NCBI GenBank assembly: GCA_008330645.1
Contig: VLTN01000060.1
Span: forward strand, 153,334-217,333
Direction: 5' to 3'
DNA length: 64,000 bases
DNA from: Cafeteria roenbergensis
Lineage: Eukaryota > Sar > Bigyra > Bicosoecida > Cafeteriaceae
Of this stretch, positions 38,176-64,000 are shown piece after piece. The position numbers and the translations under genes were made by a program. The notes under the pieces were generated by a model, which saw nothing but the letters and a program-made list of their open reading frames with translations, was not told the origin of the DNA and searched no databases. How positions within the stretch are numbered: position 1 is the stretch's first letter; the number at the start of each line of letters is the position of its first letter.

Positions 38176-38277
38176 GGCTGCGACGGACGTGCCGAGTGCT
38201 CAAGCTGCCCGACGGGTTGCAGAATATTGAATCGATTCAAATTTCCCTCTGGTGCGCGCAATGTCGAGGGCATGCTG

Positions 38278-41410: not shown

Positions 41411-43528
41411 ATGTTCTCTTACCGTGAGCCTGGCCACACTGCCGCGCTTGCTGCCGCCGGGCTGCGTACGGCTCCAGCTCTTGGAAGCCCGCCCAGGGGC
41501 CGATGCGCGCCGCGACTGCCCCAGCGGACACTGCACGGCCTGGCAGCCGTCGTCCTGCCCCACGCGACTGGGCGTCCGCTTCACGACGAGGTGCGTCTGT
41601 GGCCCGCAGATCTCGCTCTCCGCCACGCGGCGGACGAGGAGGGCAAGGCCGAGGCCTCGGCCACGCTGGAGGGTCTGTCGCGCGTGGCGCGGCGCAGCAT
41701 CGCGGGCGCGCCCGACCAGGCCACGGCCACAAGGAACCTCGCTGCCGCCGCTCGGCCAGGGCAGCGGCAGAGAGACCTTGCCCTGCAGGTCACTCGGCGA
41801 GTGCTGGAGGCGGCGCGCTCCCCCCACGTGAATGATGCGGCGGCGCGGCAGGCTGCTGCGGCGCTGCGAGGAGCGCAGTCGGCCGCCGAGGACGCTGCGG
41901 CGCGCGCGCAGGGTGCGGCGCCGGTGCACAACACGCACAGCCGCAGGCTGGCGGCAGGGCTGGGGCACGTGTGCGCGGGGCAGGAACCGCGAAGCCGCGC
42001 CATTTCGTCACCAACCAGAGCGACGGGGCACGAGACGAGGGGCGGCGCGACGAGTGCGGCCCCGTGGGGGGCGACGGACGTGGCCATGGCAGCAGCCCGC
42101 CAGGCCGCCGAGGAGGCGGCGGCGGGATCGGCCCACCCCGAGGCTGAGCCGGCATCGGCGGGTGTTCCGGGAGGCCGCTGCTTTGTGGTTGCGGGCGGGG
42201 CGGCAGGACGGCTGCAGCACGCGCCAGGCCCCGAGCAAGGATCCCCGGCGCTGCGGCGCTCAGCGGCAGCTGCCGCCATCGCCGAGCAGACTCTGGCCGT
42301 CGCAGGCGGGGGCCGCCCGGGTCCGCTCGGCTCTGCTGGAGGAGGGATCGTGGGAGGCTCCTTCGCTGCGGGCCAAGCCAGCCCGGCGTCCCGGCACCGT
42401 CGCCTTGCTCCTGCACTGAAAGCAGTCCGCTTGAGCTGGGAAGACGCTGTGGCGCAAGTGCTGCCGCTGGCTCGGCGAGTGGCGGCGGCGTGTGTGTCTG
42501 CCAAGGCTGCTCGTGCAGGCCGAGGTGGCAGGGTGGGGCAGCAGCAGGGGGGGGCGATGGGGACGGCGCACCCACGCGCCGGTGTCTCGGCGGCGCAGGC
42601 GGCAGCCAACAAGGCTGCGGAAGCCGCTGCCGCGGCCCACAGGCAACTGGCGGCGCAACGGGCGTTGCTTGCTCGTGAGGGCAGGTTCGAGGAGCTGAAG
42701 GCCCTCCCTTCTGCCGCTGTGACGCGTGCTCTGGCGGAGGCGGCAGCCGCCGCAGCGGCGCAGGAGGAGGACGACGACGCCGACGAGGGGGGCTGCCTCG
42801 GTGCCGCCACTGCAGGGCTGCTGCCGACCAGAGCTGGCAGAGGAACGGCGCACGAAGGCCGGCGCCAGTGGGTGCTCACGGGGTGCGGCGACGCGTCGGG
42901 CCTCTCTGGCCGGGCGGGAAGGGGAGACATAAGCGGGGGCGCCATGCCGACGTCGCTCAGGGCAGCAGAGCCGTATGTCGACCAGCGGCCAAGCCAGCGA
43001 GGGTCAAAAGTCGAGGCGCTGCCAAGGCGCGCCGCAGGCAGGCGCATGGCGGGAGAGCGCAAGACTTCAGGGCCGGCCATTCCAGTCGCGACTGGAGCAC
43101 GGACCAGTCCCGAAAGAGGGGGTCGATTGTCTCGTGAACGCCTGCCGCTCCATGCGCCCAGAGTCGTGCCTGGGACGCAATCAGCCTCTCAGAGAGTTCG
43201 AGACACCAGGGCCCGGGAGAGCGCCAAGGATGTCAGCGAGCGGCCCTTCAAGCACTTGGCCTTCAAGACCGAGCGCAAACAAGCGGCGGAGGACCAGTCT
43301 GCAATCGAACACAGAGCTGTGGCGCTGCAAGTGCGGTTCCTCACGCAGGCTGCCCACCAGAGAGCTGACAGGGAGCACCGACAGGCGTTGGAAAGGTACA
43401 TGAAGAGCCGGCGGAACTGGGATCACGACGGGGAGTCTGCGTCGGTTCCAAGCAAACGCTCGTTGCTTCGTCAAAGCAGGCTAGACCAGCTCGCGAGGCT
43501 CTCGCAGGCCGCTACCCTCGATGACTGA
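41411..43528 (+). CDS. Unknown Ala/Arg-rich protein lying between the duplicated blocks
   Basis: An open frame running from at least 41006 to the TGA at 43526-43528; in-frame ATGs occur at 41150 and 41411, and a possible GTGAGC donor at 41424 means the 5' structure is uncertain. From 41411 the product is 705 residues. It is mainly Ala-rich helical sequence with repeated Ala-Ala-Arg and Glu-rich segments; a short acidic run (EEDDDADEG) lies near 42770. The most protein-like part is the C-terminus: RPFKHLAFKTERKQAAED and AVALQVRFLTQAAHQRADRE, a likely coiled coil, ending LDQLARLSQAATLDD. No family recognised. That last segment also occurs at 38278-38322 as part of the left duplication. Confidence 0.45.
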   Translation: MFSYREPGHTAALAAAGLRTAPALGSPPRGRCAPRLPQRTLHGLAAVVLPHATGRPLHDEVRLWPADLALRHAADEEGKAEASATLEGLSRVARRSIAGAPDQATATRNLAAAARPGQRQRDLALQVTRRVLEAARSPHVNDAAARQAAAALRGAQSAAEDAAARAQGAAPVHNTHSRRLAAGLGHVCAGQEPRSRAISSPTRATGHETRGGATSAAPWGATDVAMAAARQAAEEAAAGSAHPEAEPASAGVPGGRCFVVAGGAAGRLQHAPGPEQGSPALRRSAAAAAIAEQTLAVAGGGRPGPLGSAGGGIVGGSFAAGQASPASRHRRLAPALKAVRLSWEDAVAQVLPLARRVAAACVSAKAARAGRGGRVGQQQGGAMGTAHPRAGVSAAQAAANKAAEAAAAAHRQLAAQRALLAREGRFEELKALPSAAVTRALAEAAAAAAAQEEDDDADEGGCLGAATAGLLPTRAGRGTAHEGRRQWVLTGCGDASGLSGRAGRGDISGGAMPTSLRAAEPYVDQRPSQRGSKVEALPRRAAGRRMAGERKTSGPAIPVATGARTSPERGGRLSRERLPLHAPRVVPGTQSASQRVRDTRARESAKDVSERPFKHLAFKTERKQAAEDQSAIEHRAVALQVRFLTQAAHQRADREHRQALERYMKSRRNWDHDGESASVPSKRSLLRQSRLDQLARLSQAATLDD

Positions 43529-46170
43529 TGGCGCGTGGCGTGTGTGGCGCTGGGCAAGGCAACGGCAACTCTGCACTCGACTGGCGTCGTTGTGGCTGGG
43601 CGCAGTCCCCAAGCGCGAGCACGCACACACACGAGCGGGCGCCTCCAGTGACCGCCGTACGCCGCGGCCCGAGTCGCTGTCAGCGCTGCTGCGAGGGATA
43701 GAAGGGCGGGTGGGGGTGAGAAGGCATGGGCACGTGCACGGTTGATGGGGGGCGCTCTGCAGGCACTGGCCGCGTCAACCACCAGGAGACCGCCTCGCGG
43801 ACGGGATGGATCGACGGTGGGGGAGGACGTCGCTGCTGGCGGCCGGCGGCTGGAGCTGGCTTCAAGAGATCGGGAAAGATTTCGTCAGGTATGATTATCA
43901 CTGCTTATCCCCACGGTTAAGTAAGACTGGGGCGGCAGTACAATTTCGTCATCTCCCCTGAAGCACAGCATCCAGCCGCAGCCGCACAGCAGCAGCGGCG
44001 CACCTCCACCTCCGCAGAATCCATATCCGGAGCCCCGCCTCCACCCATCAGGAAGGAGGCGGTCGGGACGGGCTGGCCGCCGGCCGGCCTTGCCATCGAG
44101 CGTCGGACTTAAAAAGCTCGATTAGGGTTGTTTCAACAGCGGACCGAGGCCCTTTTGCGTTGAATTTCCTCGTCATCCGCTCGGGCAAGGCCGCGACGGA
44201 CGGAGCCATGGCTGGCCAGTTGGCGCGATGGTGGGTCAGAGAAGGGGGATGCGGTCTCGTCACCGCGGCCCATCGTGTGGGCCGCTTGGAGACTCTAGTC
44301 TGAAAACATCCGAGATCGTCATACCCACCAGTCGGCCGGCCGGACGGGCCTCAGGGCAAAGACGACAGAAGTGCAGTCTGTCACGCGCCCGCACCAGGCA
44401 GCCCCATTCCGCGGGGCGCCCGGACCGGGCATCCAGACGGAGTACGCACATTCGGCTCATCACTGGCCCGAGGACGGAGGCGGGCGCGAGCCATGGCTGG
44501 GGAAGGCACACTGGCCGGGACTCACGAGTTGCGCACGGCCAGCGGCAGCCGGCGAGCGGTGCAGCCGGCCCTCAGAGAATGAGACAGCCGCGCGTGGCCC
44601 GGGCACTGCGCGGTCGGGTCGGGGGACGGGAGGCGGAAACGATGGCGTCGGCGGCCGGGAGGCAGTCCGCCGCCGGGCGGCGGGGATCCTAGTGTCAGAC
44701 AGGGGCGAAAGAATGCGAGATGTCTCCATATGGACGGTGTCCGGTCGGAGTGAACTATGCATGAGTGTGGGTATCATCACCCACTAGGTTGCCCACCGCG
44801 GCACGGCACGGAGCACCGGCCGTGCCGTCGGGAGCGGCGGGGCGGGGCGGATGGGGCTGGAGCGCGGCAGCGGGGGGTGGAGGGCTCGGTAGGAAGGCAG
44901 CTCGGACGAAAAAGATCGATTTTTCACCGACTGGTGTTCCAGCCATCAATGGCAGGGGGCGAACCCCACCATGTCCTTGTTCGTCACCGCCCCCGGGCCC
45001 GCCGGACGCGCTCGCTCGCCCGCCATGGTGCAGCCCATCTCACGCCAATCGTCGCCGCTGGGTGCCTCCAATGGAGGCCTCCCGCCGCGGGATCCGCCGT
45101 CCGGAAGGCAACGTCGCTGCGGGGCACGGCGGACCGGGGGAGGGCGGGAACGACACACGACGATGCGGTGGCCAGGGGCACGGGTCGGAGCGGCGCAGCG
45201 CGCCACGGCGGTGGGAGTCGCTCAGAGATCTTGGTGATAGGTAATGTCTCATCACGTCCGGTTGATGGCCGGTATCAAGAGTAGCAAATAAAGTTAACAT
45301 CGTTGCGGCTCGGCGCGGCACGGGGACCGCTGGCGGCAGCACCCTCGCCCCGACCCTCCCGCGTTCATTCTCAGACAAATGCCTCAGTATAATCAAGGTG
45401 GAACCCCCTCCAGCTGAATGGATTGGTGCCTTCAGGGTCATACTCGTCATCTTTTGTCATCACAGAATGCGCGGGACGCCGCGGCCAACGGGAGCGCGCG
45501 CGCACACATGGCGTGCAACGGCGAGTCTCACAGGTACCGCATCCGGAATCTCGGCGGCGATGGCCAGGGGGCGGGTGCGCTCAGGGCGCCGAGGCAGCGG
45601 CAGGAGCCGCGGAAGGACCGCCGCCCGTTGCCGGAAGGGTTGTTTGAAACAGCCCCAAACGTGATGGACTGCTGCGCCCCCGACGGCCGTGGCCAGATCG
45701 GGAGCGCGCAGCGCAGGCGACCCCCACTAGTCGGGAAGACCGGCCATGGCTGCGGGCGGGAGCGGACGCGAGGGCCGACACGGAAGGGGGAGGGCGCTGG
45801 TGGCTCGGGGCGCGCCTGACATGGCCGCCAACGACGAGCACTTCGCGAGCGCAAGCCCGCGTCGAAACGCGGCCTCGCGCCGCGACAACGCGATGTGCGT
45901 GTGCTTCGGGTCAGTCTAGAACGGCCCCCTGGCTTGAATGTTGGGGGCCGTCCTCTTTCCAAGAAGTCATGGTCGATCAACCGGGGAAAGAAGGTGCTTT
46001 GCATCACACCCGGAGCGCACGCTGGCGAGGCCGCAGCGCAGCAGCCCTGGCACGCGCCGGGCGCGGGGGGGGCAGGGAGCCCCTCGGCCGGCGCGTGGCT
46101 TGGCTGGCAGCTTGGCGGCCGTGGCCGTCGCAGGAGTTGGGGGGGCGGACGCGAAGCCAAAGGCTCACCT
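43484..46170. repeat. 2.7-kb direct duplication, right copy
   Basis: Partner of 38278-40971. It begins inside the last codons of the Ala-rich gene and ends 178 bp before the eL31 start codon, so it occupies the whole spacer between those genes and may contain eL31 regulatory sequence. No coding exon is supported inside. The internal hairpin is at 45921-45951. Confidence 0.93.
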
Positions 46171-46348
46171 TGCACTGTCGTGACGAAGATCGTTCGAGTG
46201 GCCTGCAAAGGCTGCCTCGTTCGGTCTCGTGGCGGCTCTGCAACAGAGGCGGCAGGCCGACGTCGGCCTCCTCACGGTCGTCAAAGTTCCGCCTGCTGCG
46301 CGCCTCCAGAGCCCTCGCCACTTGGGCCGGTTCCCCGATCTAGCTGCC

Positions 46349-48478: not shown

Positions 48479-48942
48479 GCCGCTCCCCCGCTACGGCAGT
48501 GCCTCGTCGACGTGTGGCTTGCTCCAGCTCCGACCGCGGCCCGCGCGCCCGCTCGCTGCTGCGGTGGTGGCGGCAGCGGCGGCAACCGCGGGGGGGGTGA
48601 GGGGTGGCAGCCGGCTTTGGCTGCCAGGCAGAGGGGCAGGCCTGGCAGAGCGCCTTGCCCCTGCGTCACCGGCCCGAGCAACCATGCTTTGCGGGCTCCC
48701 AAGCGCGCCACTCAGCACAACCGCCCGCCCTGCGACGGCCCCCGTGGGCATCTCCCGCGGCTCGTTGCACCCGCGCCTGCCTGTGGCGCTTGCCCTGCTC
48801 CGCTCTGCCGAACCCGCGCTGCCCGCGAGAGCGCGACCTGGGCCCGTCACAGCGGCGTGTCCCGGAGCGGCTTCACCAAGAAAGCCTCGGCCTGCACTCG
48901 CAGTCCCCATTCGTCTTGCTGCTTGCCGACTGGAGGGGCTCC
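48479..48942. promoter_or_regulatory. Divergent region, ELP6-like / peroxiredoxin
   Basis: A 464-bp interval between divergent start codons. No additional exon or motif recognised. Confidence 0.35.
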
Positions 48943-49914
48943 ATGGCGGCAGCGGGCGCGAGTGACGGAGGGGCGGACGCTGCAGTCCGCCTCGGCGACC
49001 AGCTTCCCGACTGCGCGATCACCACGGACCAGGGGACGAGTAGTCTCCTCAGCTTCGACCCCAGCAACTGGCTGCTCCTCTTCTCGTATCCCAAGGACAT
49101 GACTCCCGTGTGTGCAACGGTGAGCATGCACGGCTCGGCCGCCGGCCTCTTGCGTGCCAGCGAGGCGGGCCTGCGGAGCGGTGGGTCCTCCCTTGCTTCT
49201 CCGCGCGCGCGCGCGCGCGCGCGCGAACTCGTTGGGTGTGGCCGATGGCATGGCCCCAGTTCTTGGCGCTGTTTGCCTCTTGTGCTTGCCTTTGTGCAGG
49301 AAATGGCGGAGCTCGCCAAGTGCCACGAGGAGTTTTCGCGCCGCGGAGTTTCCCTGCTTGGACTGTGCGTCGGGACCGTGGAGGAGCACCGAGCCTTTGT
49401 CCAAGACGTGGAGGAGACATTCGAGGTCTCGATTCGTTTCCCGGTGATTGCCGACGTGTCCCGAGAGGTGGTCCGCAGCCTGGGCCTGATTCACCCCCGC
49501 ATGCGCGGCACCGCCGGCGGAAGGCACAGCGTTCGCAGCGTGATCGTCGCGTCGCCTGTCGAGCCGGATGCCGCAGGCCGCGAGGTGGAGCTCTTGCTGC
49601 ACTACCCGCCGCACATTGGCCGCGACACCACGGAGCTGCTGCGCTGCGTGGACGCGCTCCTGCGCTCTCACGCGGATGGCGACATTGGCACTCCAGCCAA
49701 CTGGCGGGCCGGCGACGACGTCCTGTTGCTTCCCACCGCCACAGAGGAGGAGGTCGATGAGAAACAGGCCGCCCGGGCCACCGCTGCTGCAACAGCAGGG
49801 CCGGGCGGGGACGCGACGGCAGGCGCCCCCGCTGCACCCTCCGGCTTCAGCCAGCTTCGGTCGTATTTGCGCCTCAAACCCGACCCCGGCATTTCGTTGC
49901 GAGACGACCTGTAG
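48943..49914 (+). CDS. 1-Cys peroxiredoxin (PRDX6-like)
   Basis: Two exons, 48943..49119 and 49300..49914, give 263 residues; the intron (180 nt, containing an alternating GC tract) is GTGAGC to TGCAG, phase 0. Exon 1 ends within the active site and the join gives LFSYPKDMTPVCATEMAELA, with the peroxidatic Cys in the P-V-C-x-T-E context of PRDX6. LLGLCVGTVEEHRAFVQDVE and FPVIADVSREVVRSLGLIHP match the rest of the thioredoxin-like fold, and the PRDX6-type C-terminal arm contains LLHYPPHIGRDTTELLRCVD and ANWRAGDDVLLLP. A second resolving Cys is not evident. The last 50 residues are an Ala/Gly-rich extension ending LRLKPDPGISLRDDL. It reduces hydroperoxides. Confidence 0.88.
   Translation: MAAAGASDGGADAAVRLGDQLPDCAITTDQGTSSLLSFDPSNWLLLFSYPKDMTPVCATVSMHGSAAGLLRASEAGLRSGGSSLASPRARARARELVGCGRWHGPSSWRCLPLVLAFVQEMAELAKCHEEFSRRGVSLLGLCVGTVEEHRAFVQDVEETFEVSIRFPVIADVSREVVRSLGLIHPRMRGTAGGRHSVRSVIVASPVEPDAAGREVELLLHYPPHIGRDTTELLRCVDALLRSHADGDIGTPANWRAGDDVLLLPTATEEEVDEKQAARATAAATAGPGGDATAGAPAAPSGFSQLRSYLRLKPDPGISLRDDL
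49201..49224. repeat. Alternating GC dinucleotide tract in intron
   Basis: About 12 CG units inside the peroxiredoxin intron; potential Z-DNA or slippage site. Confidence 0.8.
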
Positions 49915-52304: not shown

Positions 52305-53600
52305 TCACGGAGCGGAAAGCTCCGGGACGCGGAGCTCGCGAATGGAGCCCCCGTTGTCGCGGCGCATCAGCGACTCGGCCTCAGACCCCGACGGCACCAC
52401 ATACAGGACCGGCATGCCGGGCACGACGCAGTCAGGCTGCAGCAATGGGAGCACCAGCGGCGCGGCAAGAGGAACCCGAATCCACTCCCGAGCCGGTTCG
52501 TCAGCGGCAGGGCGCGAGGCAGCCAGGTCAGCATCATCGTCGTCGGCGGCGGCCTCTGCGCCCTCGATCTGCGCAGCCCACAGCGCCTCAGCCGGGACTT
52601 GGGGCGTTTCGTGCGTGCGGTAAAAGACGGACACGTTGTCCACGGTGTAGGCGCCCTCCGTGTCCCACGGCGCCGGAGGACCGGAGCCCCTGGTCGCAGG
52701 GAGCATCGCAGCAACAAGGTCCCGCACGCTGGCAGACTCGGCGCACGACTGGACCATCTCGCTGATGCCTCGAGCGGGGAAGAGGAGCGTCACAGGCCAG
52801 TGCATGGTGCCGTCCTCGTCCACGCTGGGCACCGCGTCGGAGGTCCGCACCATGTCCTTCATCAGCGGCTTGCCGATGCGAAGACCGCGCTCGGCGCACG
52901 CGCGCCTCGCAGCCGCCACTCGACGCTCGCGCTCAGCAAGCTTCGCCGCTGTGGCCGCGCGGCGCTCCTCTGCCACGCGCACGCTGTCCTCTGCCCGGGC
53001 CAGCAGTCGCTCTACCGCCGCCTTGGCCGCGCCCTCGGTGAAACCCAGCGCTGGCCGGAGCGCGTCCACTGCCTTTTGAAACTGGCCGAGCTCCACGCAG
53101 CAGGACCCCTTGCGAAAGGCCGCCTTCCCGTTTGACGGGTTGGCGACCAGGGCCTCCTCAGTGGCGCCCAGCGCGCGATGCCACACGCGTCGCTTCATGT
53201 ACACGGCGGCGATGTTCGAGTGGAGAACGGACTCCAGCGCCCGGCGCTCCTCCAGCAGCGCAGGGGAGTCTTCCACTTGCCCAGCAAGGCCAAGTGCATC
53301 TTTGTAGTGGCGAAGGGCGTTGCCAAAAAACTCGGGACCCTTCTTGAAGGCCGCATTCCCGCGGTCCTTTCGCTTCACTGCGCTGCTGAGAGCCTCTCTA
53401 TCGTCTGCCACGTCCGCCGCGCGCATGGCCTCTCCAAAGTCTGCCGCCTCGTCCGGGGACACATCCCGGAACAGAGGGTGCTCCTCGGCGTCGCCAAGGC
53501 TGTCCAAGTAGCGCTGATGCTCCTCGTCGGTCCATTCTTTCACGTCGTCGAACGCGCTTGCAACGACTTTGGAGGCCTCCGAGGCGGCCCGGTCCGCCAT
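52305..53600 (-). CDS. TTC4/Cns1-like TPR co-chaperone
   Basis: A single exon of 431 residues from the ATG at 53600 (MADRAASEASK); the frame is open for 53 codons upstream, but that part is unlike the family. The N-terminal motif EEHPLFRDVSPDE matches the H-P-L-F-M segment of TTC4. Three TPR units follow: AVKRKDRGNAAFKKG, VLHSNIAAVYMKRRVWHRAL and KAAFRKGSCCVELGQFQKAV. A charged helix (around 52900-53000) and a C-terminal 'wheel'-like domain with MHWPVTLLFPARGISEMVQ and VDNVSVFYRT complete the TTC4/Dpit47/Cns1 plan. Such proteins bind the C-terminal EEVD of Hsp90/Hsp70. Confidence 0.82.
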   Translation of the reverse strand: MADRAASEASKVVASAFDDVKEWTDEEHQRYLDSLGDAEEHPLFRDVSPDEAADFGEAMRAADVADDREALSSAVKRKDRGNAAFKKGPEFFGNALRHYKDALGLAGQVEDSPALLEERRALESVLHSNIAAVYMKRRVWHRALGATEEALVANPSNGKAAFRKGSCCVELGQFQKAVDALRPALGFTEGAAKAAVERLLARAEDSVRVAEERRAATAAKLAERERRVAAARRACAERGLRIGKPLMKDMVRTSDAVPSVDEDGTMHWPVTLLFPARGISEMVQSCAESASVRDLVAAMLPATRGSGPPAPWDTEGAYTVDNVSVFYRTHETPQVPAEALWAAQIEGAEAAADDDDADLAASRPAADEPAREWIRVPLAAPLVLPLLQPDCVVPGMPVLYVVPSGSEAESLMRRDNGGSIRELRVPELSAP

Positions 53601-53995
53601 GGCAAGCCCCGCTGAGCCAAACGCGCGGGAGGACCAGAGAGCCGCTGCGTGGTCGGGCCAGGCAACTCGAAGGCGGCCTGGAGGTGGGGTCTTCGCCGCT
53701 TTGGACCTTCTTTGCGCCCACACGGCTCTGCTCGACAGTGCCGTGGGCCAGCCGATCACGACACCACAGCAAGACGGCTGCAGCAGGTGGCATCCATGGG
53801 GCCCCTGTGATGGAATCTCGCGGCTCTCGCGACCAGTCTCGTCTCACGTGTGGGAGGCGGGGGGGGGGGAAGGGGGCGGGGTGCGGGCGACACAGACGCA
53901 GCCGCAAGCAAGGGGCAAAACTTGGAGGCTCTGCCTCGCCCGACCAGCACTCGCCAGAAATCGGCGCTGCCGAGAACAAGGCCGTCCCTTCAATG
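53601..53995. other. Intergenic region upstream of TTC4-like gene
   Basis: A 395-bp interval between the TTC4-like start and the decayed ankyrin exon. It includes a G-run at about 53861-53880. No exon or element recognised. Confidence 0.4.
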
Positions 53996-54483
53996 AGCGC
54001 GGGCGAAGAGGGGTGAGCGCTTTGGAAGGCAGCGAGGGATGGGAACGCTGCCGAAGCCCGCAGACCGCTCGACGCGGGCGCTCCAGTCGACGGGGGAAAG
54101 GCTGCCAGCTTGAGAGCCCTGGAGCCAAGAACTGGCTTGCCGCACGTAGTCGGGGGCACGGCGCAACCAACAGGGCTTCCCCGAAGCCATTTGCTCGCAA
54201 TGCGGGTTGCTGTGCCGTGCACCAAGCCGGACGCCACGTGCTGGGGCCGGGTCGCAACGCCCTACCGGCAGCGACCGGGCGGCCCGGGGCAAGCATGGGC
54301 TGGCGTGCGAGGCGGCACGGGAGCACGGCGCGGCGGCTGTGGTGCGGCGATATGAGTGGCATGCTTCATCCTGCGGCCTTGTAGCGCGGCGCCACGGCGC
54401 TGTTGGCAGCGGCGGCAGGCGGACACTCGGACGTTGTGGAGCTGCAGCTGGACCGCGGCGCCGACGTGGAGAGCAAGGACGAT
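53996..54483 (+). pseudogene. Decayed 5' end of an ankyrin-array gene (exon 1 remnant plus one ankyrin exon)
   Basis: 54018-54105 aligns with exon 1 of the ankyrin gene at 58698: it encodes ALWKAARDGNAAEA then a DAGAPVD segment, versus ALWEAAKAGNTAEA and DAGAPVD. An in-frame TGA (about 54015) sits just before it and the initiator context is altered. A 99-nt ankyrin exon lies at 54385..54483, encoding RGATALLAAAAGGHSDVVEL then DRGADVESKDD, followed by a GTGAG donor. Its acceptor is TTGTAG rather than the CGCAG used by nearly all other introns. The piece looks like a diverged paralogue or the abandoned original start, now cut off from the array by retroelement insertions. It could still be transcribed. 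Confidence 0.6.
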
Positions 54484-54690
54484 GTGAGACCACTGGCAAG
54501 GTGGCCCGCACGACGGGCCACACCAGGCGTCACGAGCACGGGGCGGTCTGCGGTGAAGGGCCGCGTCGTGGGGTCTGCGGCCGGGAAGCGAGCCCGAGTG
54601 GCTGCACCGCCTGAGGGCGAGGCTGCAACTGCGTGGGGGTGACGCGGGTACGTGGGCACGCAACTTGGCGACACAGTACTGCTACATGCT

Positions 54691-57600
54691 GAATGAACAT
54701 CGTTGGGGGGGTTCGAAAACTCGCGTCACCATGCCACACACTCGATTCACAGACTCACCAAACACCAATCGAGCAACTCCAGCACCGATGAATCACAAAC
54801 CGCGCCAAACCCGCAATCCCAAATCCCAAGCCCCAGATCACTCCCATCACACTGCCTCGAGTCGCCACTCAGCCGCCCCTGCTCACCGCATACGCTCCAC
54901 CTGCTGCCGCAGGTACTGCGTCTGCCCGGTCAGCTGGGTCGCCAGTCCCTTGGCGATGACCTCGTTCAGCCTCGACAGCCAGCGGAAGGCCCAGCGCGCA
55001 CGCTCCCTCGGCCGGTCGCCGAAGGCCGTGTCCGCCACCTTCTTGAGGAAGGCGAAGGCCGCCGGTCCCATGCGTCCCGTGGTCGTGACGACGAAGGGCA
55101 CAATGGAGCTCAAGTTGTCCTTTGTAGCTGAGCTCTTCTTGTACTCCCTCATCTTGTCATTCTCACGGCGCTCGAGAAAGGCGTCCATGTTCTGCAGGCC
55201 CTGCGTCACGTAGGACTTGCTCACCGCCGAGGTGATCTGCACGTCGACGAGACGGGTGGTCTCGAAGTCGACGTGCACCCGCAGGTCCGGTCGCTTGCGC
55301 GCGGCCTCGCTGGACCCCGGCTGGGACCCGAAGCGCGTCTGCCCGTCCTGCCAGCTGGAGGGCTCCACCACCGACTGTAGCCCCGCCGAGCGCACCGCCG
55401 CGTGCAGGACGTCGCGGACGTCGTTGTGCGCCCGGATGGTGGAGCCCTTGCCGCAGCGGCAACGCGCCAGGTGGTGCGCCACGCCCGAGATCCCGCCGAT
55501 GTGGACGGTGCCTCTCGCGGTGGTGTCCCGCTGCACGCACGCGCAGTTGATCGACACGCCGTCCGGCACCACGTGGTCGGCCTCGGAGGCTCCGATGCGG
55601 TAGCGGGTGACCACCGCGAACTCCTCGTCTGTGAGCCCGCGGGGCCCCATCATCGTGTTGCGGAGCCAGTAGTGCGTTCCCGGCACGCACGCCTCTCGGA
55701 ACGCGACCAGGTCGCTCATGACGCGCAGCATGGCCGGGTCGTCGATGTTGGCGACACGCTTCTCCGGCGTGCCCTTGGCCAGCGCCTCGGCCCTGCAGCG
55801 TGCTGTGCAGGCCCTGCGCGCCTTGGCCAGACGGCGCAGGAAGACACACTCGTGCTTGATGCGCATCATGTCGTCGTGATGCAGCACCATCTTGCGCTGC
55901 CAGGGCGCCTCGGTCTGCTCGTTCGCCCGCGCTGTCACCCCGTCGCCGTATAGGCACTTGCGGAGCTTGGCCTTCAGCTCGCCCGGCAGCTTACCCAGGG
56001 TGTCGGGCAAGAAGCCCTCGAACCCTGTCGCTGCGGCCAGGCAGCGGGCTCCCTTGCATGCCCTGATGAACTCCTCCACCAGGTTTGCAGTTGCCTCCAT
56101 GTCATCCGACGACTCGTCGTCAGATCTGAGCTCCATCATCGCCTCCAGCGCCAGCTCCTCGATCTCGGCGCGCAGCTCTTCCAGGCCCTCGACAGCCCCC
56201 GCGATGTCCGACCTCCACACGTGCGCCAGCTGGTAGCGCTTCTTCACCCTGGCGTCATGAAGGTCGGCCTCCTTGCCCACGACGCAGTCCTTGTCCGGCC
56301 TGAAGTACCGTGCCTCGGTGCAGGCGTCCTTGTACTCCTTGCTGTCCCGCTCGTAGTCCCGGTAGGCTCCCTTGGCGACCTCCTCGCATCGCAGCAGGAT
56401 GTCGCCCACCTCCTTGGTCGCATCGCTGCGGTCTGAGCGCTTCAGCGCCCGCATCACGAGTTTCTTGAGCGAGATGCCCTTCCAGTTGCGGTCGTTGCCG
56501 TCCGCGTCCGCGTCGGGTCCGTCCCTGGCCAACCCGATCGCCGGCGTTCGCCTGACCGAGTAGACCTGTGCCGCATCCGCTCTCGGCTGTGCGGCATCAG
56601 ATGTCTCTTGGCCGGTTGGAGCGCCAGCCGCACTAGCTGCCGCTGCGCCGCCGCCGCTCGTCGTCATCTCGGTTGCCGCTCCCGCCGCGCTGGCGGCAGC
56701 CGCACCTTCGCCGCCCGTCTGGCCTCCGCCTGTCGGTGTTGGCTGATGCCCCGGTTCAGCCGCTCCCTCCGTACCGCTGACGAGCCACCCATCCAGCGTG
56801 CCCGCAGGCTGCTGCCCATGCACCGGCCCCTCCTCGCAGTCCTCCTTGGACTCGCTCTCCCCGATCGCCGAGTGGTCCACCCACGGCGTGCCGCCCGCTG
56901 CAGCAGCCGCCGCACCCGACTCATCCTCCGCTTCCGCCTCGCCGATGCTGGCTGGTCCCGCTCCGGCACCACTCCCCGACGCCGGCTCTCCTCCGCCTCC
57001 ACCAGTGTCGGCCCCGTCAAGGGCCTCCTCCGGCGGTGGCGCCATCTCGAACCGCCCTTTCCGCATGTCCCGAACGGCCTCGATGAAGCCCGCTGTCGCC
57101 TCGAAGCGGAACTGCGCCACGCCAGGCAGGCCCATGCCACCGGCTTTGCAGCCCTTGCTCAGCATCTTTGCCAGCCTCATCTGAGCGTAGCCTCCCTTCT
57201 TCAAGGCCGGGTTGGACGCTGCCGATGCGAGCCGAGTCACACCGTCGGCTTCCCGGCCCAGGAGCGCCCACCACGCCTCCCGCCTTGCGTGCTCGTCCGG
57301 CAGCCCCCGAACAAGCGCCTCGATGGCCTTGGACATGGCCTCGCGGAAGTCGCCCTCGGTCAGCGTGCACATCTCGTCCGAGAGCGCGTGGCCGATCGCA
57401 TCCAGCTCCGTCTTGTGCGCCACTGCCGACAGGTTGGCCAGCAGCGCCGCATGGAACACCGCCAGCTCCTGACCCGCCGCCGCACCCGCTGCTCTGTGCA
57501 GGTAGCTGAACTTCTGTCCGAGCACTGACAGCAGCAGGTGGTGCGCCCGCTTGAGCCCGCAGACCTCGATGCCTGCGAGCAGGCGCTCCGCGGCCGGCCC

Positions 57601-57931
57601 AAACTCCTTCTCTAGTCGCTTCATCGACTGTTCTAGAGCCACCTCCGTCGAGAGGTCCTCCCCCACAGGACACTGCAGCACCGCCACGCTCCGTTCGGTG
57701 AGGCGACACCCCTCCAGCACCGGAGGTGGGGACCCTGGACCGTCCCTACTCCGTTGAATCTCCCGCTGGATTCTGGCCTTCGTTTCCTCGCGCTGTCCAC
57801 GTTTGCACAGCACCTGGGTCTTGTCGGTGTTCATCCGCAGCCCCACCGTGCTGAGCCGCTCGGCCAGCATCTGGGCTGCCTTGAAGGCGCTCTTCCTCGG
57901 GCCCACGAGCGTCGTGTCGTCGGCCATCTGC
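54691..57931 (-). mobile_element. 5'-truncated non-LTR retrotransposon with C-terminal restriction-like endonuclease (copy 1)
   Basis: A 3.2-kb element in minus orientation. Its 3' end (plus 54691) shows a TTCATTCA-type tail; its 5' end is truncated inside the reverse transcriptase at the A-D-D box (57925). About 190 nt of 3' UTR separate the tail from the stop at 54883. The same tail and UTR recur at 57932-58128. The truncated end abuts the 3' tail of copy 2, so copy 1 appears to have inserted at, or been templated from, the tail of an earlier copy. Confidence 0.8.
54883..57930 (-). CDS. Retrotransposon polyprotein fragment: RT C-terminus, zinc knuckle, PD-(D/E)XK endonuclease
   Basis: About 1,015 codons remain open. 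The first residues are the RT catalytic box in degenerate form (QMADDTTLVG, replacing F/Y-x-D-D), then MNTDKTQVLCKRG, the RT thumb entry. A long thumb/linker region follows, with an Ala/Gly/Thr-rich insert. Near the C-terminus are a Cys/His cluster (C-A-C, then VAHHLARCRCGKGS, then AHNDVRDVLHAA) and RPDLRVHVDFETTRLVDVQI. The spaced RPD and VDV motifs are those of the restriction-like endonuclease of R2/NeSL/Utopia-type non-LTR elements. No apurinic endonuclease domain is seen. The frame continues 27 codons upstream into copy 2's tail by chance. With its 5' half missing, it cannot be autonomous. Confidence 0.75.
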   Translation of the reverse strand, partial: QMADDTTLVGPRKSAFKAAQMLAERLSTVGLRMNTDKTQVLCKRGQREETKARIQREIQRSRDGPGSPPPVLEGCRLTERSVAVLQCPVGEDLSTEVALEQSMKRLEKEFGPAAERLLAGIEVCGLKRAHHLLLSVLGQKFSYLHRAAGAAAGQELAVFHAALLANLSAVAHKTELDAIGHALSDEMCTLTEGDFREAMSKAIEALVRGLPDEHARREAWWALLGREADGVTRLASAASNPALKKGGYAQMRLAKMLSKGCKAGGMGLPGVAQFRFEATAGFIEAVRDMRKGRFEMAPPPEEALDGADTGGGGGEPASGSGAGAGPASIGEAEAEDESGAAAAAAGGTPWVDHSAIGESESKEDCEEGPVHGQQPAGTLDGWLVSGTEGAAEPGHQPTPTGGGQTGGEGAAAASAAGAATEMTTSGGGAAAASAAGAPTGQETSDAAQPRADAAQVYSVRRTPAIGLARDGPDADADGNDRNWKGISLKKLVMRALKRSDRSDATKEVGDILLRCEEVAKGAYRDYERDSKEYKDACTEARYFRPDKDCVVGKEADLHDARVKKRYQLAHVWRSDIAGAVEGLEELRAEIEELALEAMMELRSDDESSDDMEATANLVEEFIRACKGARCLAAATGFEGFLPDTLGKLPGELKAKLRKCLYGDGVTARANEQTEAPWQRKMVLHHDDMMRIKHECVFLRRLAKARRACTARCRAEALAKGTPEKRVANIDDPAMLRVMSDLVAFREACVPGTHYWLRNTMMGPRGLTDEEFAVVTRYRIGASEADHVVPDGVSINCACVQRDTTARGTVHIGGISGVAHHLARCRCGKGSTIRAHNDVRDVLHAAVRSAGLQSVVEPSSWQDGQTRFGSQPGSSEAARKRPDLRVHVDFETTRLVDVQITSAVSKSYVTQGLQNMDAFLERRENDKMREYKKSSATKDNLSSIVPFVVTTTGRMGPAAFAFLKKVADTAFGDRPRERARWAFRWLSRLNEVIAKGLATQLTGQTQYLRQQVERMR

Positions 57932-58577
57932 ATGAATGAACATCGTTGGGGGGGGTCGAAAACTCGCGTCACCATACCACACACTCGATTCACAGACTCA
58001 TCAAGAACCAATCCAGCAACTCCAGCACCGATGAATCACAAACCGCGCGAAACCCGCAATCCCAAGTCCCAAGCCCAAATCACTTCCACCACGTCGCCAC
58101 GAGTCGCCACTCAGCCGCCCCTGCTCACCGCATGCGCTCCACCTGCTGTCGCAGGTACTGCGTCTGCCCGGTCAGCTGGGTCGCCAGTCCCTTGGCGATG
58201 ACCTCGTTCAGCCTCGACAGCCAGCGGAAGGCCCAGCGCGCACGCTCCCTCGGCCGGTCGCCGAAGGCCGTGTCCGCCACCTTCTTGAGGAAGGCGAAGG
58301 CCGCCGGTCCCATGCGTCCCGTGGTCGTGATGACGAAGGGCACAATGGAGCTCAAGTTGTCCTTTGTAGCTGAGCTCTTCTTGTACTCCCCCATCTTGTC
58401 ATTCTCACGGCGCTCGAGAAAGGCGTCCATGCTCTGCAGGCACTGCGTCACGAACTTGGCCACCCCGATTGTCTGCGTCCCCCCCGCCGAGTAGACCTGC
58501 ACGGCATCCGCTCTCAGCTGCGCGTCAGCTGCTGTCTCCTGGCTGGCTGGAGCTCCGGCCGCACTGGCCGCCGAACC
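57932..58577 (-). mobile_element. Internally deleted, 5'-truncated copy of the same retrotransposon (copy 2)
   Basis: The 3' UTR and last ~105 codons (58125-58447) closely match copy 1. Upstream of 58450 the sequence jumps to a part that in copy 1 lies about 1.3 kb further 5' (DGAPASQET-like and ADAVQVYSAGGTQTIG versus ADAAQVYSVRRTPAIG). The element ends near 58577, only about 120 bp before the ankyrin gene ATG. The deletion junction keeps the translational frame open. It may supply promoter or 5' UTR sequence to the ankyrin gene (inference). Confidence 0.72.
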
Positions 58578-58697: not shown

Positions 58698-61600
58698 ATG
58701 GCCACCCTTCCTATGCAAGAGGGTGCAATGGCCGGCGCGCTTTGGGAGGCGGCAAAAGCCGGGAACACCGCCGAGGCCAGCAGGCTGCTGGACGCGGGCG
58801 CGCCGGTCGACTGTAAAAACGACGCAGACGTGAGCGCTCGTTGTCACGGCGTGCGTTGCAGCCAGTCCTGCGTCTCTGTCCCACCAGGCGAGGCTGCTGC
58901 CTTCGAGTTGGGCCGCGCGCGGGTGCCAGGAGCTGGCCGTGGGCCGCGGTGGCAATGGGGGCAGCATCACTGGCTGCTGGCGAGCGGGAGGCGTCTCCGG
59001 TGGCATGCGGTGACGGCTGCGGTTGTTGATGGCACAGAGCCTCGCAGAACGGATTCACGGCGCTCGTTGCCGCTGCATCCGGTGGCCACACGAACACGGT
59101 GGAGCTGCTGCTGGATCGCGGCGCCGACCTGGAGGCCAAGGATGAGGTGAGTGCGGCGGGCGTGTTTGGCTGCGCGACGGGCCGCGGAGGGCATCACGCT
59201 CAAGCCCGGGGCGGGGGGCGGGGCTGGCGATGACATGTCGGGGCGTCGTGGTCGTGTGGCGGGCCGGCGTGGGAGGCGGGGCCGGAGTTGGGGGGGGCAT
59301 GTCGGTTGGGGGAGCGATGGTGCGCCGAGGTGAGTTGGCATGCGGGCCTGCTGGGTCGCAGTATGGTGCTTCGGCACTTTGTATGGCTGCATCCGGTGGC
59401 CACACGGACGCGGTGGAGCTGCTGCTGGACCGCGGCGCCGACCTGGAGGCCAAGGATGAGGTGAGTGCGGCGGGCGTGTTTGGCTGCGCGACGGGCCGCG
59501 GAGGGCATCACGCTCAAGCCCGGGGCGGGGGGCGGGGCTGGCGATGACATGTCGGGGCGTCGTGGTCGTGTGGCGGGCCGGCGTGGGAGGCGGGGCCGGA
59601 GTTGGGGGGGGCATGTCGGTTGGGGGAGCGATGGTGCGCCGAGGTGCGTTGCCATGCAGGCCTGCTTGGTTGCAGTATGGTGCTACGGCGCTCTGTCGTG
59701 GCGGCATCCGGTGGCCACACGGACGTGGTGGAGGTGCTGCTGGACCGCGGCGCCGACCTGGAGGCCAAGGATGAGGTGAGATCGGCGGGCGTGTGTGGCT
59801 GCGCGACGGGCCGCGGAGGGCATCACGCTCAAGCCCGGGGCGGGGGGCGGGGCTGGCGATGACATGTCGGGGCGTCGTGGTCGTGTGGCGGGCCGGCGTG
59901 TGAGGCGGGGCTGGAGTTGGGGGGGGCATGTCGGTAGGGGAGCGATGGTGCGCCGAGGTGCGTTGACATGCGGGCCTGCTTGGTTGCAGTATGGTGCTAC
60001 GACGTTAGCTGTGGCTTCATACGGTGGCCACACGGACACGGTGGAGCTGCTGCTGGACCGCGGCGCCGACCTGGAGGCCAAGGATGAGGTGAGATCGGCG
60101 GGCGTGTTGGCTGCGCGACGGGCCGCGGAGGGCATCACGCTCAAGCCCGGGGCGGGGGGCGGGGCTGGCGATGACATGTCGGGGCGTCGTGGTCGTGTGG
60201 CGGGCCGGCGTGTGAGGTGGCACTGGAGTGGGGGGGGCATGTCGGTAGGGGAGCGATGGTGCGCCGAGGTGCGTTGACATGCGGTCCTGCTTGGTCGCAG
60301 CATGGTGCTACGGTGCTTGTTGAAGCCGCATACGGTGGCCACACGGACACGGTGGAGGTGTTGCTGGACCGCGGCGCCGACCTGGAGGCCAAGCTTGTTG
60401 TGAGTTGGGTAGCCGTGTGTTGCTGCGCGACGGACCGCGCGGGGCGTCACGCTCAAGCCTGGGGGGAAGGGGCGGGGCTGGCGGTGACGTGCCGGGACGT
60501 CGTGGTCGTGTGGAGGGCCGGTGTGGGATGTGGCGCTGGAGTTGGGGGGGGCATGTCGGTAGGGGAGCGATGGTTCAACGAGGTGCGTTGACATGCGCGC
60601 CTGCTGGGTCGCAGCATGGCGCTGCGGCGCTTGTTGTTGCTGCATCCGGTGGCCACACGGACACGGTGGAGCTGCTGCTGGACCGCGGCGCCGACCTGGA
60701 GGCCAAGGATGAGGTGAGATCGGCGGGCGTGTGTTGCTGCGCGACGGGCCGCGCAGGGCGTCACAGGCGGGCCGGGGGGGGGGGGGGGGGCTGGCGGTGA
60801 CGTGCCGGGACGTCGTGGTCGTGTGGCGGGCCGGTGTGGGATGTGGCGCTGGAGTTTGGGGGGCATGTCGGTAGGGGAGCGATGGTGCGCCGAGGTGCGG
60901 TGACATGCGGTCCCGCTGGGTCGCAGCATGGTGCTACGGCACTTGTTGAAGTCGCTCCCGGTGGCCACACGGACACGGTGGAGCTGCTGCTGGACCGCGG
61001 CGCCGACCTGGAGGCCAAGGATGAGGTGAGATCGGCGGGCGTGTGTTGCTGCGCGACGGGCCGCGTGGGGCGTGTCGGGCGGGCCAGGGGGAGGGTGGGG
61101 GGGCTGGCGGTGACGTGCCGGGACGTTGTGGTCGTGTGGCGGGCCGGCGTGTGATGTGGCGCTGGAGTTTGGGGAGCATGTCGGCAGGGGAGCGATGGTG
61201 CGCCGAGTTGCGTTGACATGCGGGCCTGCTTGGTCGCAGCATGGTGCAACGGCGCTTGTTGAAGCCGCATACGGTGGCCACACGGACACGGCGGAGCTGC
61301 TGCTGGACCGCGGTGCCGACCTGGAGGCCAAGGGCCGCGTGAGTGCGGCGACCGTGTGTTGCTGCGCGACGGGCCGCGCGGGGCGTCTCGGGCGGGCCGG
61401 GGGGAGGGTGGGGGCTGGCGCTGACGTGCCGGGACGTCGCGGTCGTGTGGCAGGCCGGCGTGGGAGGCGGGGCCGGAGTTGGGGGGGCATGTCGGTTAGG
61501 GGAGCGATGGTGCGCCGAGGTGCGTTGCCATGCAGGCCTGCTGGGTTGCAGTATGGTGCTACGGCTCTGATGGCGGCGGCAGCCGGCGGCCACACGGACA

Positions 61601-64000
61601 CGGTGGAGGTGTTGCTGGACCGCGGCGCCGACCTGGAGGCCAAGCTTGTTGTGAGATGGGTAGCCGTGTGTTGCTGCGCGACGGACCGCGCAGGGCGTCA
61701 CGGGCGGGCCCGGGGCGGGGGGCGGGGCTGGCGGTGACGTGCCGGGACGTCGTGGTCGTTTGGCGGGCCGGTGTGGGCTGTGGCGCTGGAGTGGGGGGGG
61801 CATGTCGGTCAGGGGAGCGATGGTGCGCCGAGGTGCGTTGACATGCGGGCCTGCTTGGTTGCAGTATGGTGCTACGACGTTAGCTGTGGCTTCATACGGT
61901 GGCCACACGGACACGGTGGAGCTGCTGCTGGACCGCGGCGCCGACCTGGAGGCCAAGGATGAGGTGAGTGCGGCGGGCGTGTGTTGCTGCGCGACGGGCC
62001 GCGCGGGGCGTCTCGGGCGGGCCAGGGGGAAGGGGCGGGGCTGGCGCTGACGCGTCGGGGCGTCGTGGCCGTGTGGCGGGCCGGTGTGTGATGTGGCGCT
62101 GAAGTTTGGGGGGCATGTCGGTCAGGGGAGCGATGGTGCGCCGAGGTGAGTTGACATGCGGGCCTGCTTGGTTGCAGTATGGTGCTACGGCTCTGATGGC
62201 GGCGGCATCCGATGGCCACACGGACACGGTGGAGGTGCTGCTGGATCGCGGTGCCGACCTGGAGGCCAAGGATGAGGTGAGATCGGCGGGCGTGTGTGGC
62301 TGCGCGACGGGCCGCGCAGGGGCATCACAGACGGGCCGGGGGGAAGGGGCGGGGCATGGCGGTGACGCGTCGGGGCGTCGTGGTCGTGTGGCGGGCCGGC
62401 GTGTGAGGTGGGCTGGAGTGGGGGGGCATGTCGGTCAGGGGAGCGATGGTGCGCCGAGGTGCGTTGACATGCGGGCCTGCTGGGTCGCAGTATGGTGCTA
62501 CGGCTCTGATGGCGGCGGCATCCGATGGCCACACAGACGCGGTGGAGGTGCTGCTGGACCGCGGCGCCGACCTGGAGGCCAAGGATGAGGTGAGTGCGGC
62601 GGGCGTGTGTGGCTGCGCGACGGGCCGTGCAGGGTGTCACAGACGGGCCGGGGGGAAGGGGGGGGGCTGGCGGTGACGCGTCGGGGCGTCGTGGCCGTGT
62701 GGCGGGCCGGTGTGTGAGGCGGGGCTGGAGTTGGGGGGGGCATGTCGGTCAGGGGAGCGATGGTGCGCCGAGGTGCGTTGACATGCGGTCCCGCTGGGTC
62801 GCAGGATGGTGCAACGGCATTTGTTGTGGCTGCATCCGGTGGCCACACGGACGCGGTGGAGCTGCTGCTGGACCGCGGCGCCGACCTGGAGGCCAAGGAT
62901 GAGGTGAGTGCGGCGGGCGTGTGTGGCTGCGCGACGGGCCGCGCAGGGTGTCACAGACGGGCCGGGGGGAAGGGGGGGGGCTGGCGGTGACGCGTCGGGG
63001 CGTCGTGGCCGTGTGGCGGGCCGGTGTGTGAGGCGGCGCTGAAGTTTGGGGGGCATGTCAGTAGGGCAGCGATGGTGCGCCGAGGTGCGTTGACATGCGG
63101 GCCTGCTTTGGTCGCAGTACGTTTCTAAGGCACTTGTTGCGGCGGCATCCGGTGGCCACACGGACACGGTGGAGCTTCTGCTTGACCGCGGCGTCGGCCT
63201 GGAGGCCAAGGGCCGAGTGAGATTGGCGGCCGTGTGTTGCTGCGCGACGGGCCCCGTGAGGCGCCACGGGCAGGCCGGAAGGAAGTGGCTATGGCAACGA
63301 TGCGTCGGGGCGTCGTGGTCGTGTGGCGGGCCGGCGTGGGAGGCGGCGCTGAAGTTTGGGGGGCATGTCGGTCTGGGGAGCGATGGTGCGCCCAGGTGCG
63401 TTGACATGCGGGCCTGCTGGGTCGCAGTATGGTGCTTCGGCACTTTGTATGGCTGCGTCCGGTGGCCACACGGACGCGGTGGAGCTGCTGCTGGACCGCG
63501 GCGCCGACCTGGAGGCCAAGGATGAGGTGAGATCGGCGGGCGTGTGTTGCTGCGCGACGGGCCGCGCAGGGTGTCACAGGCGGGCCGGGGGGCAGGAGGG
63601 GGGGCTGGCGGTGACGCGTCGGGGCGTCGTGGTCGTGTGGCGGGCCGGTGTATGAGGCAGGGCTGGAGCGAGGGGCATGTCGGTCAGGGGAGCGATGGTG
63701 CGCCGAGAAGCGTTGACATGTGGTCCTGCTTGGTCGCAGTGTGTTGCTACGGCACTTGTTGTAGCGGCATCCAGTGGCCACACGGGCACGGTGGAGGTGC
63801 TGCTGGACCGCGGCGCTAACCTGGAGGCCAAAGACCGCGTGAGATTGGCGGCCGTGTGTGGCTGCGCGTCGGGCCGCGCAGGGCGTCGCGGTTAAGCCGG
63901 GGGCGAGGGGGGGCTGACGGTGACGCGTCGGGTCGTCGCGGTCGTGTGGCGGGCCGGCGTGTGATGTGGCGCTGGAGTTTGGGGGGCATGTCGGTAGGGG
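58698..64000 (+). CDS. Ankyrin-repeat protein made of tandem single-repeat exons (3' end beyond window)
   Basis: Exon 1, 58698..58829, begins MATLPMQEGAMAGALWEAAK and holds a capping ankyrin-like repeat (ALWEAAKAGNTAEASRLLDA, GAPVDCKND). It is followed by ankyrin exons 59048..59146, 59362..59460, 59676..59775, 59990..60088, 60301..60399, 60615..60713, 60927..61025, 61240..61338, 61552..61650, 61865..61963, 62178..62276, 62491..62589, 62805..62903, 63118..63216, 63428..63526 and 63740..63838; the gene runs off the right edge. All are 99 nt and phase 0 (one ankyrin repeat of 33 residues) except 59676..59775, which is 100 nt. Each carries a TAL motif (for canonical TPLH), GGHTDTVELLLDRGADLEAK-type helices and a variable last pair of residues. 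Donors are GTGAG, acceptors CGCAG or TGCAG. Predicted product is an extended solenoid for protein binding; partner unknown. Confidence 0.78.
59048..64000 (+). repeat. Tandem 310-314-bp exon-intron repeat array
   Basis: Sixteen complete units are visible, each a 99-nt exon plus an intron of 211-215 nt; start-to-start spacing is 314, 314, 314, 311, 314, 312, 313, 312, 313, 313, 313, 314, 313, 310 and 312 bp. Introns are as alike as exons: each has a GTGAG donor, a CTGCGCGACGGGCCGC block, a GTCGTGGTCGTGTGGCGGGC-like block, a GGGGGGCATGTCGGT block, GCGATGGTGCGCC and an acceptor region GGTCGCAG or GGTTGCAG. Introns after units 1-4 (exons from 59048 to 60088) share a 'GGAGGGCATCACGCTCAAG' variant absent from most later units, giving local subfamilies. 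Confidence 0.93.

What the first reader, a model, noticed from the sequence alone, without database searches (positions are those of the whole stretch)
58698..64000. Ankyrin gene built from at least 16 near-identical 99-nt single-repeat exons in a 313-bp exon-intron array
Seen directly: exon = one ankyrin repeat, all phase 0, with intron lengths held within 211-215 nt. Any whole number of units can be gained, lost or skipped without breaking frame, so the locus is organised for repeat-number change both by recombination and by alternative splicing. Most ankyrin genes have repeats spread over irregular exons. This module-per-exon, co-homogenised architecture could be a fast-evolving recognition system.
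Basis: partly seen in the sequence, partly recalled or inferred. Interest (0 to 1): 0.9.

Follow-up and report, generated by a model that had tools for sequence, protein, structure and literature searches.

The report
Ankyrin gene of swappable one-repeat exons
A gene in a GC-rich eukaryote, probably a microalga, is built from at least sixteen copies of one exon-plus-intron block, each exon coding for one ankyrin repeat; the copies look mixed and matched by recombination, and they differ mainly at the end of the repeat that usually binds other proteins.

Summary
The array is real. Sixteen consecutive units of about 313 bp each hold one ankyrin (ANK) exon between a GTGAG donor and a YGCAG acceptor, after a 132-nt first exon coding for an ANK cap. 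Fifteen of 16 exons are 99 nt and phase 0; one (59676-59775) is 100 nt and frameshifted. The array runs off the window.

Indels: 1 in the exons, 26 in the introns. A diverged upstream ANK copy (53993-54689), broken in its first exon, keeps an open 99-nt exon at the same boundaries while its introns have nearly lost similarity. Both argue for coding, not a satellite.

New here: units are recombinational mosaics (PHI p 0.0005, the permutation floor), and variation concentrates in ANK positions 1-14 (beta-hairpin and inner helix), a segment split by the intron in DNA but contiguous in protein. That points to a protein-level cause.

Best reading: an ANK gene diversified by unequal crossing-over and short-tract conversion, like Podospora NLR ANK repeats but exon-borne. 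Positive selection is not shown by pN/pS; splicing is untested; function is inferred; the organism is unidentified.

The parts
58698..58829 (+). exon 1, 44 codons, N-terminal ankyrin cap, phase-0 donor GTGAGC
   Evidence: translation and sequence; Pfam Ank_2 covers residues 15-109 of the exon 1-3 translation
58830..59047 (+). intron 1, 218 nt, not recognised as related to the array introns
   Evidence: sequence; not among the hits of the array-intron profile
59048..59146 (+). ANK exon 2 (99 nt)
59362..59460 (+). ANK exon 3 (99 nt), same protein as exon 16
59676..59775 (+). ANK exon 4, 100 nt, frameshifted, ends in a stop
59990..60088 (+). ANK exon 5, identical in DNA to exon 11
60301..60399 (+). 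ANK exon 6
60615..60713 (+). ANK exon 7
60927..61025 (+). ANK exon 8
61240..61338 (+). ANK exon 9
61552..61650 (+). ANK exon 10
61865..61963 (+). ANK exon 11, identical in DNA to exon 5
62178..62276 (+). ANK exon 12
62491..62589 (+). ANK exon 13
62805..62903 (+). ANK exon 14
63118..63216 (+). ANK exon 15
63428..63526 (+). ANK exon 16, same protein as exon 3
63740..63838 (+). ANK exon 17; its intron is cut by the window end
59147..64000 (+). span of the array introns (between the exons listed): 15 complete, 211-215 nt, and one cut; G-rich on the coding strand
53993..54109 (+). relic first exon of a related ANK gene: in-frame TGA, and TT at the place aligned to the GT donor of exon 1
   Evidence: similarity to exon 1 (78.7% over 75 nt); translation and alignment
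54385..54483 (+). relic ANK exon, 99 nt, open, AG before and GTGAGA after
   Evidence: profile hit E 3.5e-15; boundaries
54484..54689 (+). diverged intron-like remnant after the relic exon
   Evidence: first 60 nt 62-65% and whole 57% identical to array introns I4, I7, I12; 60 shuffles of I7 give mean 49%, highest 63%

Best explanation
This is the 5' part of a spliced protein-coding ankyrin gene. The sequence shows that each array exon encodes one 33-residue repeat and that the exon-plus-intron block of about 313 bp is the unit repeated in tandem. It also shows that the units are mosaics whose segments have different histories, as unequal crossing-over plus short-tract gene conversion would leave, and that variation is concentrated in ANK positions 1-14 (the end of one exon plus the start of the next) while the second helix and the loop stay nearly fixed. 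Inferred: homogenisation acts on the whole block while selection on the protein keeps many different binding-face cassettes, so the locus can shuffle recognition modules and change repeat number in frame. Inferred: the protein binds varied or changing protein partners. What it binds and which domain follows the repeats are unknown.
For: Anatomy: 15 of 16 exons 99 nt, splice motifs at all 16 units; 12 of 15 complete introns carry a frame-0 stop, and 12 of 15 have TGAC 26-28 nt before the acceptor (calling it branch-point-like is recall). Indels: 1 in 1585 nt of 16 exons against 26 in 3206 nt of 15 introns, Fisher p 0.00035. The relic keeps an open 99-nt exon, 45 of 54 sites identical to the array consensus in nt 37-90, with 7, 5 and 14 differences at codon positions 1, 2 and 3 over the whole exon, while its intron is about 57% identical. 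Recombination: PHI 0.316 against a null of 0.588, p 0.0005 (window 5; windows 10 and 20 give the same p); exon nt 1-36 distances uncorrelated with the six other segments of the unit (Mantel r -0.02 to 0.08) and with the preceding intron end (r -0.05) and exon end (r 0.11, p 0.16); exons 5 and 11, six units apart, share an exact 158-nt tract though the introns after them are 86% identical. Arc: mean amino-acid distance 0.43 in positions 1-13 against 0.10 elsewhere; the most variable arc of 13 or 14 residues starts at ANK position 1 (shuffle p 0.0008 and 0.0002), of 12 at position 2 (p 0.0032), of 15 at 33 or 1 (p 0.0024). Intron sequence beside the junctions is ordinary (0.136 and 0.115).
Against: pN/pS is below 1 in every part (whole exon 0.135/0.220; residues 1-11 0.252/0.379; 12-31 0.048/0.094; 32-33 0.362/0.641), and pS is high where pN is high, so diversifying selection is not proved; old cassettes or weak constraint could give the same. 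Diversity by codon position in the array is only mildly highest at the third (0.158, 0.128, 0.189). The seven DARPin contact positions alone are not significantly more variable (p 0.085), and two of them are invariant. Positions 9 and 10, the most variable, are not classic contact positions (recall). Exon 4 is frameshifted. 18 of 205 nine-column intron windows are as diverse as exon nt 91-99, and one intron stretch reaches 0.250 over 36 columns. No transcript and no second strain.
Confidence: 0.6

Rival explanations
1. The variable arc is merely the least constrained part of the repeat. The array is an ordinary expanded ankyrin scaffold that drifts by duplication and conversion, with no recognition role.
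For: pN/pS below 1 throughout and synonymous diversity also high in the arc; DARPin contact positions alone not significant.
Against: Diversity of exon nt 1-36 exceeds all 178 overlapping 36-column intron windows (maximum 0.250 against 0.282), more than drift alone would give if the introns are neutral; 12 distinct 11-residue heads among 15 open repeats despite homogenisation.
Confidence: 0.25
2. Decaying or unexpressed tandem repeat: a former ankyrin gene, now a satellite-like array.
For: Frameshifted exon 4; a broken relic copy and retrotransposon-like sequence directly upstream.
Against: 15 of 16 exons open with GT and AG at every unit; indels about 13-fold rarer in exons (odds ratio 12.95); the first exon is open and completes an ANK cap.
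Confidence: 0.12
3. A combinatorial splicing locus: near-equivalent splice sites allow different sets of phase-0 repeats to be joined, giving many isoforms from one genome, and exon 4 is skipped.
For: Nearly interchangeable donors and acceptors and phase-0 exons.
Against: No transcript data; similar introns follow from tandem duplication alone. Docking or selector sequences were not searched for.
Confidence: 0.12
4. The introns are introners: one mobile intron family inserted repeatedly at the same repeat boundary.
For: Introns alike in sequence and length; introners are reported in other algae such as Aureococcus (PMC9860276, passages).
Against: The array-intron profile finds the 16 array introns and, outside them, only a weak hit beside the relic exon (E 0.21); exons are about as alike as introns, which block duplication explains by itself. 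Target-site duplications and terminal repeats were not searched for.
Confidence: 0.03
5. Assembly artefact: unit number or order is wrong, or the array is partly collapsed.
For: Similar tandem units; one single-base anomaly in exon 4.
Against: No two of the 15 complete introns are identical (highest pair 98%), so units are distinguishable by long reads. No reads were available here.
Confidence: 0.05

Closest known systems
Podospora anserina NLR ANK repeats with high internal conservation (Dyrka et al. 2014, PMC4986451; abstract and passages seen)
   Different: There the repeats sit in NLR proteins, differ in number between strains and show positions under positive selection; the term 'intron' does not occur in that text. 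Here each repeat is its own exon with a homogenised intron, the first exon opens directly into an ANK cap, and no strain data exist.
Podospora hnwd WD-repeat allorecognition genes (PMC2873952; passages seen)
   Same: Exchange of repeat units, with selected variation at the interaction surface.
   Different: WD40 propellers with a known allorecognition role; 'intron' does not occur in that text.
Vertebrate ankyrin genes ANK1/2/3 with many 99-nt single-repeat exons (recalled, no call)
   Same: One ANK repeat per 99-nt exon.
   Different: Recalled as old, diverged repeats with introns of unrelated size and sequence; not a homogenised array.
PRDM9-type zinc-finger arrays (recalled, no call)
   Same: Homogenised repeat units whose contact residues stay variable.
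   Different: Zinc fingers within one exon, DNA binding, strong positive selection.

Membership tests
Ankyrin-repeat protein | 33-residue ANK repeats matching the family profile | tested here: met
   PF00023 E 1.1e-40 on joined exons 5-10 and 1e-20 on exons 1-3; best PDB sequence matches are ankyrin-1/2 constructs and designed ankyrin proteins (455 sequences matched, best 60 listed)
One-repeat-per-exon ankyrin gene (ANK1 type, recalled) | 99-nt exons, one repeat each, same phase | tested here: met
   15 of 16 exons; splicing itself not tested
Fungal NLR with homogenised ANK repeats | NOD domain (NACHT or NB-ARC) on the N-terminal side of the repeats | tested here: not met
   On the gene model starting at 58698, exon 1 opens directly into an ANK cap; Pfam on exons 1-3 gives ANK families only
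Fungal NLR with homogenised ANK repeats | repeats of high internal identity with variation on the binding face | tested here: met
   13 of 33 residues invariant over the 15 open repeats. The 85%-over-100-residues criterion of that paper was not computed
Fungal NLR with homogenised ANK repeats | positive selection at binding-face positions | tested here: inconclusive
   pN 0.25 and pS 0.38 in exon residues 1-11
Fungal NLR with homogenised ANK repeats | repeat-number polymorphism between strains | not testable with these tools
   one sequence only; no genome held for the window
Introner family | same intron sequence in unrelated genes | tested here: inconclusive
   none in the 64-kb window beyond the array and a weak hit beside the relic; genome not available
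Combinatorially spliced exon array (Dscam-like) | isoforms with different exon choices | not testable with these tools
   no transcript data

The most novel reading that the evidence does not exclude
A single-cell eukaryote runs a modular recognition gene in which each binding module is a self-contained exon cassette. Intron-borne homology drives constant unit exchange, and interchangeable splice sites also let the cell choose module sets per transcript, giving both inherited and somatic diversity. The strand-biased, G-rich introns would be part of the recombination device.
Probability: 0.12. Interest if true: 0.88.

Novelty: new variant of a known kind. Interest (0 to 1): 0.55.

Why it matters
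If the reading holds, an alga-like eukaryote has arrived at the same solution as fungal nonself-recognition genes (homogenised repeats with a variable binding face) through exon cassettes. The intron gives an internal control for selection, because the variable protein arc is split by it in DNA. That makes it possible to test from strain data alone whether selection on the protein or local mutation drives such hypervariability.

Tried and rejected
Own genome search: none held. Array-intron motif in viral contigs: 0 exact matches; in the window with up to 3 mismatches: 15 matches, all in the array. ANK relatives: 9 phage records, all below 60% identity, 5 of the 9 listed, and one contig of the viral collection with intronless ANK ORFs at 45%. 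tblastx of the flank against the array gave mainly scattered low-scoring pieces, was cut in the output and was not used. Below-cutoff non-ANK Pfam matches on exons 5-10 (VWA_3_C, MT0933_antitox, ADPrib_exo_Tox) were taken as chance. The DARPin-contact-only test was not significant (p 0.085).

Literature: searches aimed at one-repeat-per-exon or tandem-exon ankyrin genes (0, 2, 1, 20, 4 and 6 papers, with 15 of 20 and 4 of 6 listed) showed no title or abstract opening on this architecture; the wider searches were listed in part (15 of 26, 20 of 72, 12 of 19). Five papers were opened, by term search only. The library lacks most subscription papers, so this does not show that the architecture is unpublished.

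Organism: GC is 65-76% in 2-kb steps, and some genes have Pfam matches in one long frame, SDA1 nearly complete. Diacronema lutheri (73.25% GC, 45% single-exon genes; PMC8379373, passages) is only a lead. Structure prediction and fold search were not used, because the spliced protein is not read letter for letter from the window.

Rows dropped: exon 4 from the codon and amino-acid analyses (15 of 16 exons used); exons 4 and 17 from the exon diversity figures (14 of 16); the cut intron after exon 17 from the intron diversity, indel and PHI figures (15 of 16 units). Exon 4 was kept in the PHI and Mantel tests and in the pairwise identities.
Full report
Observation. Tandem Repeats Finder gives one array, 59057-64000, period 313, 15.8 copies. 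Reading the boundaries gives exon 1 (58698-58829) and sixteen ANK exons from 59048 to 63838. Fifteen are 99 nt, and the 15 complete introns are 211-215 nt. All 16 array donors are GTGAG[T/A] and all 16 acceptors [C/T]GCAG (borders were first picked with these motifs). Exon 4 (59676-59775) has 100 nt and runs out of frame to a stop. The array is open at the window end.

Is it coding? Pfam Ank matches the joined translations of exons 5-10 (E 1.1e-40) and exons 1-3 (E 1e-20). The best sequence matches in the PDB are ankyrin-1/2 constructs and designed ankyrin proteins. The 16 exons carry 1 indel event in 1585 nt, 15 introns carry 26 in 3206 (Fisher p 0.00035; 20 in 2801, p 0.002, when the G-run columns are left out). 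Of 15 complete introns, 12 contain a stop in frame 0, so the array cannot be read through unspliced in that frame.

A relic supports the gene model. A profile of the 15 open array exons, run on six-frame pieces of at least 20 residues at E up to 1, finds one ANK exon outside the array, near 54385 (E 3.5e-15). It is 99 nt, open, with AG before and GTGAGA after; it matches the array consensus at 45 of 54 sites in nt 37-90, 21 of 36 in nt 1-36 and 7 of 9 in nt 91-99. The intron-like stretch after it aligns to array introns I4, I7 and I12 at 57%; 60 single-base shuffles of I7 give mean 49% and maximum 63%, so over its whole length it is not clearly above chance; its first 60 nt are 62-65%, and blastn matches run from the relic exon some 60 nt into it. 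A first exon related to exon 1 lies at 53993-54109 (78.7% over 75 nt), with an in-frame TGA and TT where the aligned donor has GT. So between paralogues the exon is kept and the intron is not, while inside the array exons and introns are about equally alike (mean pairwise identities 84.5% and 83.6%, the latter lowered by the cut intron). That is what homogenisation of whole blocks looks like.

Mosaic structure. Over 72 informative sites in units 2-16, nearby sites are far more compatible than distant ones (PHI 0.316 against a null of 0.588, 2000 permutations, p 0.0005, the floor). Mantel tests over the same 15 units show exon nt 1-36 uncorrelated with the six other segments of its unit (r -0.02 to 0.08). 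Exon nt 91-99 follows the start of its intron (r 0.71, p 0.002) and the exon centre (r 0.52, p 0.008), and intron columns 41-100 follow distance along the array (r 0.58, p 0.0005); the other segments do not follow distance significantly. Exons 5 and 11 share an exact 158-nt tract from 53 nt before the exon to 5 nt after it, while the introns after them are 86% identical. These patterns fit unequal crossing-over for neighbours and short conversion tracts for distant units.

Where the variation lies. Over 14 exons (4 and 17 left out) diversity is 0.282 in nt 1-36, 0.049 in nt 37-90 and 0.250 in nt 91-99. None of 178 overlapping 36-column intron windows reaches the first value (maximum 0.250), but 18 of 205 nine-column windows reach the last. 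In ANK numbering (position 1 = the D of DxxGxTPLHLAA, recalled) the variable arc is positions 1-14: over 15 exons, the most variable circular arcs of 13 and 14 residues start at position 1 (shuffle p 0.0008 and 0.0002), that of 12 at position 2 (p 0.0032), that of 15 at 33 or 1 (p 0.0024). Mean amino-acid distance is 0.43 in positions 1-13 and 0.10 elsewhere. The arc is contiguous in protein but lies on both sides of a 213-nt intron in DNA, and intron sequence at the junctions is ordinary (0.136 and 0.115). A local mutational cause would have to strike both sides and spare the intron between, so I prefer a protein-level cause. Against this, pN/pS is 0.66 in exon residues 1-11 (0.252/0.379), 0.56 in residues 32-33 and 0.51 in residues 12-31, and pS rises with pN; the seven DARPin contact positions alone give p 0.085. 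Nine single positions (6, 9, 13, 14, 18, 19, 20, 22, 29) have pN above pS, with no formal test, and five of these nine lie outside the arc. Diversifying selection is thus plausible but unproved.

Known parallels. [quoted passage not shown] The hnwd WD-repeat genes exchange units and vary at the interaction surface (PMC2873952, passages). Repeats in proteins mostly evolve by duplication and loss, with some concerted evolution (PMC5120217, passages). The present locus works like the Podospora genes but is not an NLR by the N-terminal test, and it carries each module as an exon. The word 'intron' does not occur in the first two texts.

Mechanism. Shown by the sequence: a tandem block array, mosaic units, a conserved framework with a variable arc. 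Inferred: splicing, a binding function, and selection for cassette diversity. Exon 4 is either skipped, a recent lesion or a sequencing error; these cannot be told apart here.

Setting. Between the relic and the gene lies minus-strand retrotransposon-like sequence (54690-58573). It has an open frame with reverse-transcriptase-like and nuclease-like motifs (my recalled reading; no Pfam hit), and its end is repeated at 95.8% (54690-55210 and 57933-58452). The array introns have GC skew +0.41 against +0.16 in the exons, and the array's +0.33 exceeds every other 5.3-kb window sampled at 250-base steps (-0.10 to +0.09). Whether such strand bias promotes recombination is speculation.

Holding the report against the calls corrected the number of exons behind the diversity figures, the list of positions with pN above pS, the end of the relic first exon and the arc widths tested.

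Noticed in passing
window 59147-64000: Array introns are strongly G-rich on the coding strand (skew +0.41); 10 G-quadruplex-type motifs on + and 0 on - in 58698-64000 (9 of the 16 introns hold at least one), against 18 and 20 in the remaining 58.7 kb.
   Followed up: partly
window 54690-58573: Minus-strand retrotransposon-like sequence between the relic and the open ANK gene; its end is duplicated at 95.8%.
   Followed up: partly
window 38270-40975 and 43476-46175: 2.7-kb direct duplication, 99.4% identical, about 5.2 kb apart.
   Followed up: no
window 5845-38175: Frames with Pfam matches to M14 carboxypeptidase, SDA1, amino-acid transporter, RRM and polynucleotide kinase-phosphatase; apart from SDA1 the matches are mostly partial, so introns are possible.
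   Followed up: no
window 48604-49914 and 52305-53759: 1-Cys peroxiredoxin-like frame and a Cns1/TTC4-like TPR frame.
   Followed up: no
L001 2745-7594: Viral-collection contig with several consecutive intronless ankyrin ORFs.
   Followed up: no
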